Origin: a virus
Length of the DNA stretch: 37,316 nucleotides
Virus record (IMG/VR): IMGVR_UViG_3300044904_000013
Location: 1 to 37,316 of that record
Reading direction: 5' to 3' (one strand)
Shown here: positions 1 through 37,316 of the stretch, one piece after another
How the letters are laid out: every line of letters begins with the position of its first letter
Numbering within the stretch: position 1 is the first letter of the stretch
Program-made: the position numbers and the translations under genes
The notes under the pieces: generated by a model
What the model was told of the DNA's origin: nothing
Databases searched by the model: none
What the model saw: only the letters and a program-made list of their open reading frames with translations

Positions 1-241
1 CGACGGGCTCACTGGACGCCTCCCTGCACATGAAACCGACCAAACTGGCCGTCCTTCTCTGGCCGCCACTCGCCGATGCCGGTGCCGAACCCGCCCGCGT
101 CGAGCATCGCCACGAGCTGTTCGGCCGAGACGATCCGCGCGTTGTACGTGATCGGAAGGTCGATCGACCATTCGGGGAACTCGCCGCGGTAGCGGATATC
201 GGCGGTATTGCCCTGGAGTCGCACCATGTCTTCGCGGGGCC
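1..241. repeat. Terminal direct repeat, left copy
   Basis: These 241 bases recur at the right end of the window, with one difference (G at 114, C at 37189). The difference is synonymous in the leftward gene that covers it (both codons are Leu). A gene that is cut at the right end is complete here, so the repeat most simply marks circular closure of a complete phage genome rather than two real terminal repeats. The mismatch could be a population variant or a read error. Confidence 0.9.
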
Positions 242-584
242 GCGGGTCGCCATTGATCCGCAGGAGATCGCCCTCGATGTGGAAGGCAGTTCGGGCGTCG
301 GTCATGACCATACCGAGGCCCTTTGCGCCGCGGATGGCCGCAGCCTTGACGCCGACCGCTGGGAAGCCGCAGCCGCCGTCTGGCAGCCGGTACAGCGATT
401 CCTCGTAATCACGCTCTGGGTTCTTGGCTTCCTTCGCTTGCGTGCCCTTCTTCATCTGTTTGTCGAGCATCATCTGCTTGGCCTTGTGCGACCAGGCATG
501 TGTGATGAGTGGGCTATCGCCCACGATCCGCACGGTGATGCGGCGCACGTCGATGCGCTCGGGACTGACCTGTACGGTTTCCAT
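9..584 (-). CDS. Conserved phage protein, RAMP/Cas7-like by motif
   Basis: A 191-aa protein whose start ATG (582-584) follows a GGGAG ribosome site. I recognise it as a widespread phage/prophage family with no function I can name. By eye it has features of the RAMP (Cas7-like, RRM-fold) superfamily. There is a first strand RITVRIVGDSPLITH near residues 14-28. A stretch GFPAVGVKAAAIRGA near residue 72 resembles the RAMP IPGSSLKGALR segment. A glycine-rich end GFGTGIGEWRPEKDGQFGRF resembles the C-terminal G-loop. Such proteins bind RNA as filaments; that role is inferred, not shown. It is the first gene of a leftward operon with a strong promoter. Its stop overlaps the GTG of the next gene (positions 37084-37087 in the right-hand copy). 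A 5-nt-periodic array follows that gene. Confidence 0.8.
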   Translation of the reverse strand: METVQVSPERIDVRRITVRIVGDSPLITHAWSHKAKQMMLDKQMKKGTQAKEAKNPERDYEESLYRLPDGGCGFPAVGVKAAAIRGAKGLGMVMTDARTAFHIEGDLLRINGDPRPREDMVRLQGNTADIRYRGEFPEWSIDLPITYNARIVSAEQLVAMLDAGGFGTGIGEWRPEKDGQFGRFHVQGGVQ

Positions 585-630
585 GCCCTGCTCCCGTGGT
601 GGTGGGTTCACATAATCCACCTCGGACCGG

Positions 631-659
631 AATCTACTACTCCCTATACCCGGTGTCAA
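631..659 (-). promoter_or_regulatory. Sigma70-type promoter of the leftward operon
   Basis: Read leftward, TTGACA (654-659) is followed after exactly 17 nt by TAGATT (631-636). The -35 is a perfect consensus and the -10 has four of six bases. Transcription would start near 624 and leave about 40 nt before the ATG at 584, with a ribosome site in that leader. It is the best promoter I can see in the window. Confidence 0.75.
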
Positions 660-664
660 GCGAC

Positions 665-1306
665 ATGACCGTTTCCCTTGCAATGCTGGTCCTCTCGCCA
701 CCGCTGGACAGACTCGCCGCGCTCGTCGAGTACGTCCGCCCGATCGTGAGCGAGACGGTGATCGTCACGGACGATCGCACGCCTCCGGGCGCCTGCGAGA
801 CGATGGCGGCGTGGCCCGGCGTGACGCTCGTGCCGTTCAAGTGGTGCGACGACTTCAGCGAAGGCCGCAACGCCGCGCTGCCCCACTGTCACGGCGATTG
901 GATACTGCACCTCGATCCCGACGAGATGCCGACCGCCGCCATGCTCGACTTCATCCGCACCGTTGACAGCACGCCGCAGGCCGACGTGGACTGGCAGGGC
1001 ACGCGCTACATGGCGCCGCGCGGCTACCTCTTCTTCACGAAGAACTTCTTCGACGGCAGGCAGGGTGCCGAGTGGGAAGAGCACTGGCACTGTCGCCTGT
1101 TCCGGCGCAATGCCGGGCTCTGGTACAAGCCGGTCCACGAGCAGGTGATGCTCGAGGCGATGCCGGAGAGCCGCACGCGCGGGACGCCGCTGCTCCCGAA
1201 GGCGCCGCGCGGCGCGTACTTGATCAACAGCCGCATGAATGATCCGAAGATCGACGAGGTGTACGCGGGCATCGGTGAGCGCGGGCGCTCAGGAGCGGTC
1301 GCATGA
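665..1306 (+). CDS. GT2-like glycosyltransferase
   Basis: A 213-aa GT-A fold glycosyltransferase of the family 2 type. It has an opening strand (SLAMLVLSPP), a VIVTDDRTP strand, the segment FSEGRNAAL that is typical of these enzymes, and a metal/sugar-nucleotide motif LHLDPDEMP (DxDE) near residue 85. The ATG at 665 is preferred over the upstream ATG at 596 because the conserved fold begins there. The ribosome site is weak. It is the first gene of a cassette in which every gene overlaps the next by ATGA. Its substrate is unknown. Inference: it helps modify a virion or host-surface glycan. Confidence 0.8.
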   Translation: MTVSLAMLVLSPPLDRLAALVEYVRPIVSETVIVTDDRTPPGACETMAAWPGVTLVPFKWCDDFSEGRNAALPHCHGDWILHLDPDEMPTAAMLDFIRTVDSTPQADVDWQGTRYMAPRGYLFFTKNFFDGRQGAEWEEHWHCRLFRRNAGLWYKPVHEQVMLEAMPESRTRGTPLLPKAPRGAYLINSRMNDPKIDEVYAGIGERGRSGAVA

Positions 1307-1572
1307 CGCACGATGAGCGCCTTGTGCTCTTCCGGGCCTATCTTCAGTCCGCATCGATCAAGCAAGCCGCCTACCGCTACGGCTACTCGCCGCAGACGGT
1401 CAAGAACGCGCTCTCCGCGTTGTACGCCGACCTGGACGTGCATTCGGCGGTCGAAGCGGCGGCCAGGCTCGGCTGGCTGAAGTTCCCGCCGCTGGATGTT
1501 CACCGCTGCGGGCTGGCGGGCACGTGTCGCCTGCCCCACGGCCACCGTGGGCCGCATAAGGTGGAGGCATGA
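1303..1572 (+). CDS. Small LuxR/GerE-type HTH protein
   Basis: An 89-aa protein. Residues about 15-55 read as a GerE/LuxR helix-turn-helix (SIKQAAYRYGYSPQTVKNAL followed by LYADLDVHSAVEAAARLGWL), including the TVKN of the recognition helix. The C-terminus carries HRCGLAGTCRLPHGHRGPH, a Cys/His motif often seen at the end of small actinophage proteins that may bind zinc. There is no receiver or sensor domain. It overlaps both neighbours by ATGA inside the glycosyltransferase cassette. It could regulate this cassette or late genes. That role is inference. Confidence 0.7.
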   Translation: MTHDERLVLFRAYLQSASIKQAAYRYGYSPQTVKNALSALYADLDVHSAVEAAARLGWLKFPPLDVHRCGLAGTCRLPHGHRGPHKVEA

Positions 1573-2654
1573 CGCTAGACGAGCGTTACGCCGTGCTCGA
1601 CGACGTGCTGGCAGGCAAGAGGCGCGCGGTCGTCTATCCCGCCGCGCGGATGGGCCGTCATGCGGCCCGCCGGCTTGCAGCAAGCGGAGTGCAGGTAGTG
1701 GCGCTGGGCGACAGGAGTGCATCGGGACAGACCCTTCTCGATGGCCTGCCCCTACGATCCCCAGCTCAGGTTGCCGAGATGCACCGTGAGGACGTGATCC
1801 TTGTCGCAAGTACGATGTATGACTCCGCCATCGTGCGGGACCTGACCAGCCGAGGGTGCGAGCACATCATCCCCGTCGGCTATCTCAACCGTCGTCTGCC
1901 TGACGTGTTCACGTCCCGGGAGTACAGCGGATCGTCGGAGGCGGTAACGGCCAGCCGATCCAAGATCGACACCCTGTCCGCGCTTCTAGCCGACGAACTA
2001 TCGTGTCGCGTGCTCATGGAAAAGGCGGAGTTCTACGTCGACCTCGACAAGCGCCGGCTGGAGAGCATCCGCAGCACGACGACGATCTACTTCGAGCCGG
2101 ACATCTACCCGATGTCCCATCATGAGGTGTTCGTCGATGGCGGGGCGTACATCGGGGATACGTTCGCGGAGTTCACACGGCGCACAAACGGGCGCTTCCG
2201 GTCTTATCTCGCACTCGAACCCGACGAGCAGAGTTTCGCGGCGCTGAAGATCGCCGCCGCTTCAGACGACCGGGTCACCGCCGTGCGGGCTGCTCTGGGC
2301 GAGCGGAGCACGGAGGGGCGCCTCCTCAGCACACATGGCGTCGATGCTCGGATGATGGCCGAGGATGAGCCGGGTGGCGATGCCGTCCCGATCATCAGTC
2401 TTGACGGCTATCTCCATGAACCACCGACGTTCATCAAGATGGATATCGAAGGTTCGGAAGCGGCGGCGCTCAGAGGGGCTGCTCAGGTGCTCTTGCATGG
2501 CGCGACTGCGCTAGCAGTCTCCGTCTACCACTATCCGTCCGATTTGTGGACAATCCCACTGCTTCTCAAACAACTCATGCCGTCCTGCCGTCTATTTCTA
2601 CGGCATTACACGGACGAGGTTGACGACACCGTTTGCTATGCGGTGCCAGCATGA
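1569..2654 (+). CDS. FkbM-family methyltransferase with N-terminal Rossmann-like domain
   Basis: 361 aa. Residues about 18-105 look like the Rossmann-type sugar/nucleotide-binding domain found in front of some FkbM proteins (VVYPAARMGRHAARRL, then GLPLRSPAQV and VILVAS). The C-terminal half is a SAM-dependent FkbM methyltransferase: motif I VFVDGGAYIGDTF near 188-199, acidic motif LALEPDE near 214, and the family signature FIKMDIEGSEAAALRGA near 288-304. FkbM enzymes usually O-methylate sugars or polyketide-like groups. With glycosyltransferases on both sides, methylation of a phage-made glycan is the likely role. It overlaps both neighbours by ATGA. Confidence 0.88.
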   Translation: MTLDERYAVLDDVLAGKRRAVVYPAARMGRHAARRLAASGVQVVALGDRSASGQTLLDGLPLRSPAQVAEMHREDVILVASTMYDSAIVRDLTSRGCEHIIPVGYLNRRLPDVFTSREYSGSSEAVTASRSKIDTLSALLADELSCRVLMEKAEFYVDLDKRRLESIRSTTTIYFEPDIYPMSHHEVFVDGGAYIGDTFAEFTRRTNGRFRSYLALEPDEQSFAALKIAAASDDRVTAVRAALGERSTEGRLLSTHGVDARMMAEDEPGGDAVPIISLDGYLHEPPTFIKMDIEGSEAAALRGAAQVLLHGATALAVSVYHYPSDLWTIPLLLKQLMPSCRLFLRHYTDEVDDTVCYAVPA

Positions 2655-3364
2655 AATATCTCATCTGGGCCTATGACTACTCGCACGCCTCGGCAGGGCC
2701 GAAGGCGCTGCACCGTCTCTGCCACGAGCTGACCGCAGCCGGGCAGAAGGCGTACATCGGCCAAGAATGGGCCACAAACCCCGAGTGGAACACGCCGACT
2801 CACGCCGCGCCGCTCGAGGGTGACTGGTGCGCGATCTACCCCGAGGTCGTGCCCGGCAACCCGTGGAACGCGCCGCGCGTCGCCCGTTGGGCGCTCAATG
2901 AGCCGGGACGCTGGGGCGGCGACAAGGTGTATCCGGTATCGGAGATGGTGTTCACGTGGGACCGCAAGTACCTCGCGAACGTGCCGATCCTCCAGACGCC
3001 GACGGTCGATCTTACCGTCTACTTCGACTGTCATGCCATACGGGCGGGCGCGCTGTACTTCGTCGGCAAAGGGCAGCGGGATCGGCTGCGCATCGACGGG
3101 GCGGCCACGGAGATCACGCTCGCCATGCGGCAGGACTCCCGCGTGCTGGCGGCGGCGCTCAACCGAGCCGAGATCCTGTACAGCCTCGACGAGCACACCG
3201 GCATGACGCAGCTTGCCCTGCTCTGTGGGTGCCCGGTGGCGATCGTACCGACCGGCCAGCGCTGCGAACCAGCCGGCTTCCTCGACGAGTACCTTGCCCT
3301 TGCGGCCGAGTTCCCGGCGCAGCTCGCGGCATTCATCGAGATCACACAGGGTGCAGCGGCATGA
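2651..3364 (+). CDS. Glycosyltransferase-like protein
   Basis: 237 aa starting at an ATG that overlaps the previous stop. The opening (MKYLIWAYDYSHASAGPKAL, then HELTAAGQKAYIG) resembles the first Rossmann half of GT-B enzymes, with the glycine-containing loop after the first strand. Near the end, ILYSLDEHTGMTQLALLCGCPVAIVP resembles the acceptor/donor region of family 4 enzymes, where the acidic residue is followed by a helix and CGxPV. No full EX7E motif is visible. Its place in the cassette supports a glycan role, but its substrate cannot be told. Confidence 0.6.
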   Translation: MKYLIWAYDYSHASAGPKALHRLCHELTAAGQKAYIGQEWATNPEWNTPTHAAPLEGDWCAIYPEVVPGNPWNAPRVARWALNEPGRWGGDKVYPVSEMVFTWDRKYLANVPILQTPTVDLTVYFDCHAIRAGALYFVGKGQRDRLRIDGAATEITLAMRQDSRVLAAALNRAEILYSLDEHTGMTQLALLCGCPVAIVPTGQRCEPAGFLDEYLALAAEFPAQLAAFIEITQGAAA

Positions 3365-34657: not shown

Positions 34658-36141
34658 GCAAGAAGGACATGAAGGCCATCCTCGCGCAGATGCGTGAGCT
34701 GGCGAACCGCGAGGATGCGGCAACGAAGGAAGGCGACGGTGGCCGCAAGGCCGAGGCGGCAGACGGCCGCGCAGCCGTCGCCAAGCAGTTCGTCGCTGCC
34801 GACACCGAGAAGCTCGGTGACGAGATCAAGAAGGGACGCAAGGCTTCCACAGAGCAGCGCGTCGAGGAACTGACGAAGTTCCTGTATGACAAGCGCAAGG
34901 GATCGAAGGCCGCGCTCGTCGGGCCGGGGAAGTCGCTTCAGTCCGGCATGTTCGGGAGCCGGATCAAGGGCAACTCGGCCGGCGTTCGCCCGGTCGCTGC
35001 GCTCAAGGCCAGCTTCCAGAACTACCGCGCCGGCGAGTTCATCGCAGCCTACGCCGGTGCCAAAGGCTACCTGACCGACTGGCGCGACACCGAAGTCGAG
35101 ATGGCGGCCAAGGCCAAGCTGAATGAGTTCGCCCTGTGGGCGGGGCCGCCGGATCGCTCCAGCGCGCTCCTGCTCATCGGCGGCGACGGCAAGGCTACGC
35201 TGGGCACCAGCGGCGCTACCGGCGGCTACGTGCTTCCGAATAACCTGGTCGACTCGGTTATCAAGCCGAACGTCCAGCAGGCCATCTATCCCACGCTGGG
35301 CGTCCGCGTCATCGGCGGCGTCGCAGTTCGTGGAGTCGATCAGCCGTACCGCACCGGGGCTCCGGCGCGGGCGCAGTTCGCTGACTGGGGATCCAGCAAG
35401 CAGCTCGTCGACGAGGCCTACGGGTCGTACACCGCGACCCTCGGCACGCTCGCCAAGATTTACGACGTTGGCAAGCAGTACCTCAGATTCTCCGCAGGAA
35501 GTGCCGAGCAGGACGTGATGGACGAGCTCACCAAGAGCTTCGCCCTCGCGGAGAACTACGCGATCATCGCCGGGCCGGGTACCGGCGCAGTCACGCCGGG
35601 CGTCAACGACCCGACGTATGGCCTGTACACCGCGCTCGTGGCGGGTGCGGCGACGTACACCAGCGCCATCGCCGCTCCGTCGAACGCGACACTCGTCGGC
35701 TCGTTCGCCGCGGGCCTCCAGACTGCCTCCGCAGCGCTGCGGGTTCGCAGCCGGGCGCCGTCCGGCTGGGTCGTGGACGCGACCACCTTCTCCACCGTTA
35801 TCGCCCAGGGTACCGACGCGGCGGGCTTCTTCGTGAACCCGGCCGGCGGCCCGACAGGCTTCCGCATGACCGACAGTGGTCAGCTCACCTTCTGGGGTGT
35901 CCCGATCTTCTTCGACTCGAACCTCGGCACGAACGCGACCACCAAGATCGCGATCGGCGGCGAATGGGACAGCCTCAAACTCTATCGCGGCATTGAATTT
36001 CGGATTGACAGCAGCGACGTTGCCGGGACGCGCTGGGACCAAAACTTGGTCGGCTTCCGCGGCGAGGAAGAGATCGGCATCCATGCAGGAAGCGCGGTTT
36101 CGGTCGGCGCCTTCCAGCTTCTGACTGCGGCAATCGCGTAG
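34654..36141 (+). CDS. Major capsid protein, HK97 fold
   Basis: 495 aa from a GTG that overlaps the protease-like gene. Residues 1-90 are a charged helical region (KKDMKAILAQMRELANREDA, then KKGRKASTEQRVEELTKFLY), as in the delta domain that acts as an internal scaffold. After about 165 the capsid fold follows: TSGATGGYVLPNNLVDSVIK, IYPTLGVRVIGGVAVRG, GSAEQDVMDELTKSFALAEN, and the end FRGEEEIGIHAGSAVSVGAF. The TGGYVLP and closing strands are typical of phage capsids. The delta domain would be removed by the protease. Confidence 0.88.
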   Translation: MSKKDMKAILAQMRELANREDAATKEGDGGRKAEAADGRAAVAKQFVAADTEKLGDEIKKGRKASTEQRVEELTKFLYDKRKGSKAALVGPGKSLQSGMFGSRIKGNSAGVRPVAALKASFQNYRAGEFIAAYAGAKGYLTDWRDTEVEMAAKAKLNEFALWAGPPDRSSALLLIGGDGKATLGTSGATGGYVLPNNLVDSVIKPNVQQAIYPTLGVRVIGGVAVRGVDQPYRTGAPARAQFADWGSSKQLVDEAYGSYTATLGTLAKIYDVGKQYLRFSAGSAEQDVMDELTKSFALAENYAIIAGPGTGAVTPGVNDPTYGLYTALVAGAATYTSAIAAPSNATLVGSFAAGLQTASAALRVRSRAPSGWVVDATTFSTVIAQGTDAAGFFVNPAGGPTGFRMTDSGQLTFWGVPIFFDSNLGTNATTKIAIGGEWDSLKLYRGIEFRIDSSDVAGTRWDQNLVGFRGEEEIGIHAGSAVSVGAFQLLTAAIA

Positions 36142-36160
36142 TCTAGCGGATAGTGAAAGG

Positions 36161-36198
36161 AGGCCGGACGTGATGCAGACACTGCACCCATCCGGCCT
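36161..36198. terminator. Two-part hairpin between convergent genes
   Basis: AGGCCGGA (36161-36168) pairs with TCCGGCCT (36191-36198). Inside, TGCAG and CTGCA pair around a 3-base loop. The outer stem has 8 bp, the inner stem 5 bp, and 5 and 4 unpaired bases lie between them. It starts 19 nt after the capsid stop. Read leftward it closes the pentamer array and is followed by CCTTTC. It could end transcription from either side or fold the 3-prime end of the array RNA. A true T-run is missing. Confidence 0.65.
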
Positions 36199-36560
36199 CT
36201 ACCTGCCCTGCGTTGCCCCGCCCGGCCAAGCCAGGCCTTACCAAGCCGCTCCGTGCCCAGCCTCGCCCCACCTGCCCGACCTTGCCGTACCTTGCCGTGC
36301 GTTGCCCCGCCCAGCCTCGCCATGCCAAACCGTACCGCGCCTGCCGAGCCTCGCCACGCCTAGCCTCACCCTGACGGGCCTACCATACCAAACCAGCCCG
36401 GCCATACCACACCCTGCCGCACCGCGCCTTGCCCGGCCCAACCAGACCCCGCCTAGCCCAACCCCGCCTGACCTGCCTCGCCAAGCCGTGCGCTACCCTG
36501 CCGAACCCAACCTAACCGCGCCCGGACATGCCCTGCCTGAACCCGCCTTGCCTTGCCCGG
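36196..36560 (-). repeat. Degenerate 5-nt-period array, (NNNGG)~74 on the transcribed strand
   Basis: On the + strand a CC pair recurs about every 5 bases for 365 bases. I count about 74 units, most exactly 5 nt, seven of 4 nt and two of 6 nt, with only five imperfect pairs (CG or AC). The three bases between pairs vary widely, so this is not a copied microsatellite; what is kept is the step. Read leftward the RNA is GGNNNGGNNN..., starting 5 nt after the stop codon of the gene at 36566. This is the content of the only gene-free stretch over 300 bases in the window. Confidence 0.92.
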
Positions 36561-36565
36561 CTCGC

Positions 36566-37087
36566 TCAGTGAAGAGCGATGATCGCCTCATTGGCAGTGG
36601 CGAGGGCTTGGACGGCGAGCATGATGCGCGCGACCTCGCCGCGCTTGTGCCCGGTAGTGCGAGCGACCTCGAGGAGTTCGGCAACGCGGCGTTGCGCCGA
36701 CGCGAGATCACGCTGCGCCTCAGCGAGCGCCGAGAGGTAGCGGTCGGGCATCGTGACGATCTTGGAAAGCGGCTGGTAGTCGCCCTCGCCGGCCGTCTCG
36801 GAACTAACGTGAACGTACATGGACTCGGCCGGATGATCGTCGATCATGACCACGACCGCGCGCACGAGGCGTCGAGCCTGTTCGAGTCGCAGTTGGTGCG
36901 CCGCCGTCACATCGTCCCACTCGAAGAAGGGATGCAACGGCGCGTCGGCGGCTTCTGCCTCGGCGACGATGGCCTCGGACTTGAGCGTGCCCTGCTCGGC
37001 GCGGATGCGTTCGAGTTCGGCAGCGACGGCCGCGGCGTCACCGTGGAAGCGGCTGCCCTCGCGGAACTGGTAGACCGACGGGCTCAC
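36566..37087 (-). CDS. Conserved phage protein of unknown function, second gene of leftward operon
   Basis: 173 aa from a GTG that overlaps the stop of the RAMP-like gene (GTGA), with GGGAGG upstream. It opens SPSVYQFREGSRFHGDAAAV and has PLHPFFEWDDVTAAHQLRLE followed by QARRLVRAVVVMIDD, then MYVHVSSE and a long helix LSALAEAQRDLASAQRRVAE. I recognise this as a family shared by many phages and prophages, but I know no function. The helical halves and a central beta segment are all that can be seen. The pentamer array begins 5 nt after its stop. Confidence 0.75.
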   Translation of the reverse strand: MSPSVYQFREGSRFHGDAAAVAAELERIRAEQGTLKSEAIVAEAEAADAPLHPFFEWDDVTAAHQLRLEQARRLVRAVVVMIDDHPAESMYVHVSSETAGEGDYQPLSKIVTMPDRYLSALAEAQRDLASAQRRVAELLEVARTTGHKRGEVARIMLAVQALATANEAIIALH

Positions 37088-37316
37088 TGGACGCCTCCCT
37101 GCACATGAAACCGACCAAACTGGCCGTCCTTCTCTGGCCGCCACTCGCCGATGCCGGTGCCGAACCCGCCCGCGTCGAGCATCGCCACCAGCTGTTCGGC
37201 CGAGACGATCCGCGCGTTGTACGTGATCGGAAGGTCGATCGACCATTCGGGGAACTCGCCGCGGTAGCGGATATCGGCGGTATTGCCCTGGAGTCGCACC
37301 ATGTCTTCGCGGGGCC
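37076..37316. repeat. Terminal direct repeat, right copy
   Basis: The same 241 bases as at the left end, with C at 37189 in place of G at 114. It joins the leftward gene of the right end to its start at the left end. Confidence 0.9.
37084..37316 (-). CDS. RAMP/Cas7-like protein, right-end partial copy
   Basis: The C-terminal 77 residues of the gene at 9-584, cut by the end of the contig. This copy shows the GTGA junction with the next leftward gene. It is not a second gene; it is the overlap of the circular sequence. Confidence 0.85.
   Translation of the reverse strand, partial: PREDMVRLQGNTADIRYRGEFPEWSIDLPITYNARIVSAEQLVAMLDAGGFGTGIGEWRPEKDGQFGRFHVQGGVQ

What the first reader, a model, noticed from the sequence alone, without database searches (positions are those of the whole stretch)
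36196..36560. A 365-nt array of about 74 degenerate NNNGG pentamers
Seen: a CC pair on the + strand (GG on the transcribed - strand) about every 5 nt for 365 nt, with only a few 4- or 6-nt units and five imperfect pairs, while the other three bases vary freely. Conserved spacing with variable filler means selection on the 5-nt step and on the GG, not a recent microsatellite. As RNA it is also an unbroken series of two-layer G-quadruplex motifs (GGNNN x4). I have an unreferenced memory of similar GGNNN tracts in other phages; no function is known to me.
Basis: partly seen in the sequence, partly recalled or inferred. Interest (0 to 1): 0.9.

Follow-up and report, generated by a model that had tools for sequence, protein, structure and literature searches.

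The report
Phage guide-RNA array of GGYNN repeats
This phage carries a long run of five-letter GGYNN repeats beside a CRISPR-like protein gene; it matches the recently described VIPR system, in which the two variable letters of each repeat jointly spell the DNA address of a rival virus.

Summary
On the minus strand, window 36196-36557 is about 72 pentamers GGYNN: GG, a pyrimidine (67 of 70 five-base units), two free bases. It follows the stop of a leftward two-gene operon. Across the contig's joined ends the first gene is a RAMP-fold protein matching the solved "SUSP1 Vipr protein" (profile E 1e-36; Csm3-like model); the second is a small partner, phrog_15946. So this is a guide (vrRNA) array of the VIPR system (2026 preprint PMC13142463). 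The link runs both ways: 91 of 120 loci found by DNA pattern alone carry Vipr; 76 of 94 loci found by Vipr carry the array, none on the opposite strand. I reproduced the one-base-skip code in relatives: guides match prophage portal, capsid and tail-fibre J genes with the skipped base at codon position 3. Long arrays are divided by the tetramer GGCA every 9-13 steps (261 of 330 spacings; random 61±7), and a decoded match stops there. GGCA is not in the preprint's main text; its supplement was unreadable. No target was found for the window's own guides.

The parts
36196..36557 (-). GGYNN guide (vrRNA) array, about 72 pentamers, read leftward from 36557
36474..36477 (-). GGCA tetramer (guide delimiter), unit 17
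   Evidence: delimiter role
36395..36398 (-). GGCT tetramer, possible altered delimiter
36381..36384 (-). GGTA tetramer, possible altered delimiter
36342..36345 (-). GGCA tetramer, unit 44
36277..36341 (-). 13-unit guide module between two GGCA (NN code GCxACxTTxATxGAxTGxGGxAAxACxAAxACxAAxCG)
36273..36276 (-). GGCA tetramer, unit 58
36203..36272 (-). last guide module, 13 units plus a closing GGCA(G); such a GGCAG is the last unit of 27 of 75 distinct complete related arrays
36160..36199 (-). hairpin directly 3' of the array (outer stem GAGGCCGGA/TCCGGCCTC), candidate 3' tail or terminator; outer stem shared with relative L129
   Evidence: folded within window 36140-36210, -36.8 kcal/mol, z -5.2
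36566..37087 (-). partner (vap-like) gene, phrog_15946, 173 aa
   Evidence: homologues in 108 of the 214 fetched loci scanned
9..584 (-). vipr gene (phrog_4652, RAMP fold), 191 aa with the ATG chosen here; lies at the window's left end but is next to the partner gene across the contig's joined ends
37076..37316 (.). copy of window 1-241 (240 of 241 bases); shows that the contig closes on itself; holds the 3' part of vipr

Best explanation
The array is a guide-RNA (vrRNA) array of a VIPR system. A leftward transcript runs vipr - partner gene - array - hairpin. The Vipr protein, a Cas7/Csm3-like RAMP, is inferred to polymerise on the RNA, one subunit per pentamer, holding each GGY and presenting each NN. 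The NN pairs of one guide together read double-stranded DNA with one skipped base per step (NNxNNxNN...), so that the skipped base can sit at the codon wobble position, and binding represses the target gene of a competing phage. In this subfamily the guides are strung together without spacer RNA, each closed on its 3' side by the tetramer GGCA. Shown here: sequence anatomy, gene-array association and orientation, fold, and, in relatives, the skip rule and the guide boundary. Inferred from the preprint and homology: RNA production, complex formation and repression by this phage. Not found: the window's own targets.
For: Protein: profile of 56 homologues hits PDB 36pp_D 'SUSP1 Vipr protein' at E 1e-36; window protein alone 4.6e-6; AlphaFold pLDDT 94.4, best PDB folds Csm3/type VII RAMPs, Foldseek E 2.4e-6, Z 11.4, rmsd 3.1, 151 aligned. 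Association: 91 of 120 pattern-found loci have Vipr, 90 of 91 on the array strand; 76 of 94 Vipr-found loci have an array, 76 same strand, 0 opposite; 0 arrays in locally shuffled non-array DNA. Code: 4,236 ten-unit queries against fetched loci gave 0/13/1/1 matches at one mismatch for skips 0/1/2/3 (none exact) and 20/67/30/29 at two; the 13 are 7 independent guide-target pairs. Methylobacterium guide (L209): 7 of 111 genus genomes at up to one mismatch, one exact, reversed-pattern controls 0, in homologous ORFs and in codon phase, the one scanned being central tail fibre J; in the exact case 9 of 9 units match between two GGCA and hardly any outside. Rhizobium (L211): two guides hit one prophage, 20 of 22 bases in portal and 16 of 16 in capsid, at skip 1 only. 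Clostridial guide (L219): 32 places in 27 of 300 genomes, reversed-pattern controls 4, in-phase ones in DUF2800 genes. Turnover: against L129 the vipr DNA is 511/576 identical, but the array matches at 182 of 257 aligned bases with many gaps and shares one clear module.
Against: None of the window's guides found a target: six exact 9-unit scans of the viral collection and two 10-unit patterns in 50 related records at up to 3 mismatches gave nothing. The window's modules (16, 15, 2, 7, 13, 14 units by mechanical parse) are less regular than those of relatives, and several units are imperfect, so the array may be partly decayed. 18 of 94 Vipr-found loci show no array of 12 or more units, and 29 of 120 pattern-found loci show no Vipr in the DNA held; one such array, L051, is a plain repeat of four pentamer types. 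Not every genome hit is meaningful: 3 of 6 exact hits of the 8-unit Rhizobium module lie in ORFs that do not look like phage structural genes, and some Clostridial two-mismatch hits are out of codon phase; a second Methylobacterium module gave only one hit at two mismatches. No promoter-like site was found near the operon. No RNA data exist here.
Confidence: 0.93

Rival explanations
1. A structural or regulatory G-rich RNA or DNA tract (two-layer G-quadruplexes, R-loop or pause element) that needs only the GG spacing.
For: GGNNN x4 recurs along the tract; the G-rich strand is the sense strand of vipr in 76 of 76 Vipr-found arrays.
Against: Does not explain the pyrimidine at position 3 (67 of 70), the GGCA punctuation, the tie to a RAMP protein, nor gapped matches to prophage genes with the wobble base skipped.
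Confidence: 0.03
2. A decayed microsatellite: an old pentamer repeat whose filler has drifted.
For: Repeats of a few pentamers do exist in such scans (L051 has four pentamer types).
Against: GGY kept while positions 4 and 5 approach 2 bits in dozens of contigs; the array turns over faster than the neighbouring genes; filler reads as codons of phage genes in relatives.
Confidence: 0.01
3. A VIPR locus that is no longer active in this phage: the array is a relic with lost delimiters.
For: Irregular modules and imperfect units; no target found.
Against: Open, full-length vipr and partner genes, regular last two modules of 13 units, hairpin outer stem shared with L129.
Confidence: 0.15

Closest known systems
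VIPR (Viral Interference Programmable Repeat), PMC13142463, e.g. Escherichia phage SUSP1 and Pseudomonas fulva prophage (type II)
   Same: Vipr RAMP homologue, minimal locus with one accessory gene, phage-borne, GGY/NN tandem repeats, one-base-skip targets in competing phages (preprint main text; here).
   Different: The preprint's main text describes vrRNAs of 9-16 repeats each with a 3' tail; here 72 units run on with only tetramers between guides and one hairpin at the end. It also mentions staggered arrays with overlapping vrRNAs in a supplementary figure that I could not read; these may be the same thing.
Type III CRISPR backbone subunit Csm3 / Cas7 RAMPs
   Same: Fold of the Vipr model; filament on a guide RNA with periodic skipped bases (recalled, and stated in the preprint).
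   Different: No CRISPR repeat-spacer array in the tract, and only 2 of every 5 guide bases are read.
Mycobacterium phage Saal gp51, Gordonia phage UmaThurman gp39 and ODay gp19 (annotated 'hypothetical protein')
   Same: Same Vipr subfamily (44-46% identity) with GGCA-punctuated arrays beside it.
   Different: Array upstream of vipr in Saal; different phages and hosts.

Membership tests
VIPR | Vipr protein of RAMP fold | tested here: met
VIPR | RNA-coding tract of alternating GGY and variable NN next to vipr, same strand | tested here: met
VIPR | small accessory (vap) gene in the locus | tested here: inconclusive
   phrog_15946 partner is conserved, but which vap it is, or whether it is one, could not be checked; its model has no clear PDB match (best E 0.16)
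VIPR | 9-16 repeats per guide | tested here: inconclusive
   relatives: 9-13 steps in 261 of 330 spacings; window modules 16, 15, 2, 7, 13, 14
VIPR | structured 3' tail | tested here: inconclusive
   strong hairpin, outer stem shared with one relative; pseudoknot and generality not tested
VIPR | targets read with a one-base skip | tested here: inconclusive
   met in relatives, no target for the window
VIPR | vrRNA expressed and bound by Vipr | not testable with these tools
   needs RNA sequencing and pull-down
CRISPR-Cas | long near-identical repeats with spacers at the locus | tested here: not met
   tandem repeat scan finds only two weak 10-base rows inside the tract
CRISPR-Cas | cas gene operon beside the array | tested here: inconclusive
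   the two flanking proteins have no Pfam, PADLOC or NCBIfam match; not every window protein was scanned
microsatellite | near-identical units | tested here: not met
   38 different pentamers among 70 five-base units

The most novel reading that the evidence does not exclude
VIPR has a 'comma' grammar: in a large phage subfamily one transcript carries many guides in a single unbroken GGYNN tract, each closed by the tetramer GGCA, which breaks the five-base register so that each RNP or each target match stops there. That would be a tail-less, multi-guide array distinct from the tail-per-guide vrRNAs described in the preprint's main text.
Probability: 0.5. Interest if true: 0.75.

Novelty: new member of a known kind. 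Interest (0 to 1): 0.6.

Why it matters
It turns an unexplained repeat into a readable guide array and gives an independent, purely computational confirmation of the VIPR skip code. The tract can be found by pattern in metagenomic phages, so phage-phage targeting networks can be read directly. The GGCA delimiter, if new, tells where to cut long arrays into guides, which any target search needs.

Tried and rejected
Tried and led nowhere: target search for the window guides in the viral collection (the pattern includes the closing GGCAG as its last unit, so it was probably too strict) and in 50 related records. The local search of all arrays also found none for the window array at up to 2 mismatches in 10 units. 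The first local search, 12 units and fewer loci, showed only background. Rfam: no RNA family in the window or in seventeen related loci apart from one tRNA in L211; no hammerhead at the gathering score. Partner protein: no PDB relative by sequence or clear fold match, so its role is open. PADLOC and NCBIfam do not know either protein. The phage's host could not be inferred: the listed terminase matches are about 32% identical, the capsid protein has no match. Paper searches for other reports of GGY/NN repeats or pentanucleotide RAMP systems returned only PMC13142463 as relevant in their listings.

Rows dropped before counts: alignment A1 used 56 of 65 hits (left out L015, L016, L024, L030, L033, L054, L065, L070 and the window's partial second copy); A2 used the window and 49 partner sequences, out of 109 hits in 108 loci. 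One search left out queries with fewer than five different NN pairs and masked arrays plus 15 bases each side. In one search the GGCA count is over all 83 Vipr-found arrays, the spacing test over 79 distinct ones; one search uses 75 distinct arrays not cut by a locus end.

Full report
What is there. The minus strand of window 36196-36557 is a run of pentamers GGYNN. CC on the plus strand recurs at lag 5 in 61 pairs against 24.0±4.0 in dinucleotide shuffles. Of 70 five-base units, GG is nearly fixed, position 3 is C 45, T 22, A 3, and positions 4-5 are free.

Surroundings. The window repeats its first 241 bases at its end with one difference, so the contig closes on itself. Read across the join, a leftward operon runs vipr (9-584, its 3' part again at 37084-37316), a 173-aa partner (36566-37087), then the array and a hairpin (36160-36199; the stretch 36140-36210 folds at -36.8 kcal/mol, z -5.2). 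On the plus strand lie terminase, portal and capsid genes, the capsid gene ending at 36141, so the array sits between convergent genes.

What the neighbour is. In the 80 listed loci a homologue of the window's protein phrog_4652 was found in 63, and in all 120 in 91, 90 of the 91 on the array's strand. The reverse search, from the protein, gave 80 viral and 14 genome loci; 76 of these 94 hold an array, all on the gene's strand, 70 with the nearest array downstream. A profile of 56 members matches PDB 36pp_D, named SUSP1 Vipr protein, at 1e-36. The AlphaFold model (pLDDT 94.4) matches Csm3 and type VII RAMP subunits. This led to the preprint PMC13142463. I read its text from title to references and passages, figure legends among them; the supplement could not be read. 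It describes VIPR: Vipr, a RAMP, with vrRNAs of alternating GGY/NN that read dsDNA by their NN pairs with one skipped base, acting against competing phages. The window is a member.

Code. With arrays masked, 4,236 ten-unit queries from 257 arrays were compared with the fetched loci, both strands. No match was exact. At one mismatch there were 0, 13, 1 and 1 matches for skips of 0, 1, 2 and 3 bases; at two mismatches 20, 67, 30 and 29. The 13 come from 7 guide-target pairs, one of which (from L120) hits vipr genes in several other loci. In whole genomes, a 9-unit guide of the Methylobacterium sp. Leaf108 locus (L209) matches 7 of 111 genomes of its genus at up to one mismatch, one exactly, reversed controls 0. 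All seven lie in phase with the codons, skipped base third, in ORFs of similar sequence; the one scanned is central tail fibre J. A Clostridial guide (L219) matches 32 places in 27 of 300 genomes at up to two mismatches, controls 4. Of its 12 sites whose DNA was fetched, those in phase read like the one scanned, a DUF2800 protein; others are out of phase or antisense and may be chance. Two Rhizobium leucaenae guides (L211) hit one prophage: portal 20 of 22 bases and capsid 16 of 16, at skip 1 only, next best 14 and 12. The four other modules of that array that were tested have no outstanding match in that stretch. A second Methylobacterium module gave a single hit at two mismatches.

Punctuation. 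Among 590 four-base units in 83 Vipr-found arrays, 432 are GGCA, while GGCA opens 17.8% of the five-base units. Distances between successive GGCA fall in 9-13 units for 261 of 330, random placement 61±7. The last unit of 75 distinct complete arrays is GGCAG in 27, background 2.7%, as if the last guide too is closed by GGCA. In the exact Methylobacterium target, 9 of 9 units match between the two GGCA; of the units shown outside, two match. I conclude that GGCA probably closes each guide. The word GGCA does not occur in the preprint's main text; the preprint mentions staggered arrays with a supplementary figure that could not be read. In the window the rule is only partly visible: GGCA at units 17, 44 and 58, plus GGCT and GGTA.

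Evolution. The nearest relative, L129, has Vipr 97% identical in protein and 511 of 576 bases identical, partner 408 of 522, but its array matches at 182 of 257 aligned bases within a 371-column alignment. One module is clearly shared, the rest replaced, while the hairpin's outer stem is kept although the sequence beyond differs.

Limits. No target was found for the window's own guides, no RNA data exist, the partner's role and the VIPR type are open, and the host is unknown.

Noticed in passing
L120 array at 2780-3309, first units; targets L010, L016, L020, L030, L087, L121: One guide reads, with wobble bases skipped, conserved codons near the 3' end of vipr genes in at least six other loci at one mismatch in 20 (and its own at two): a guide that looks directed at rival VIPR systems.
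   Followed up: partly
L219 array, units 54 and 126: Two near-identical guides in one array fit the same DUF2800 motif but differ where target proteins may differ (A/S, Y/F), as if tracking two alleles.
   Followed up: partly
L223 (Mycobacterium phage Saal gp51), L224 (Gordonia UmaThurman gp39), L225 (ODay gp19): Isolated phages carry Vipr homologues annotated as hypothetical, with GGCA-punctuated arrays: convenient laboratory models.
   Followed up: partly
window 1-241 and 37076-37316: Contig ends overlap by 241 bases with one mismatch, so the genome is probably complete and circularly permuted.
   Followed up: yes
window 596-2654: Glycosyltransferase- and FkbM methyltransferase-like genes lie between the capsid and the tail genes.
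   Followed up: no
L047, L071, L076, L045: Arrays in which position 3 is T almost throughout (e.g. 74 of 74 in L047), unlike the C-rich majority.
   Followed up: no
L045 3331-5059: Eight short arrays of 14-17 units in a row; no ribozyme family found at the gathering score.
   Followed up: partly
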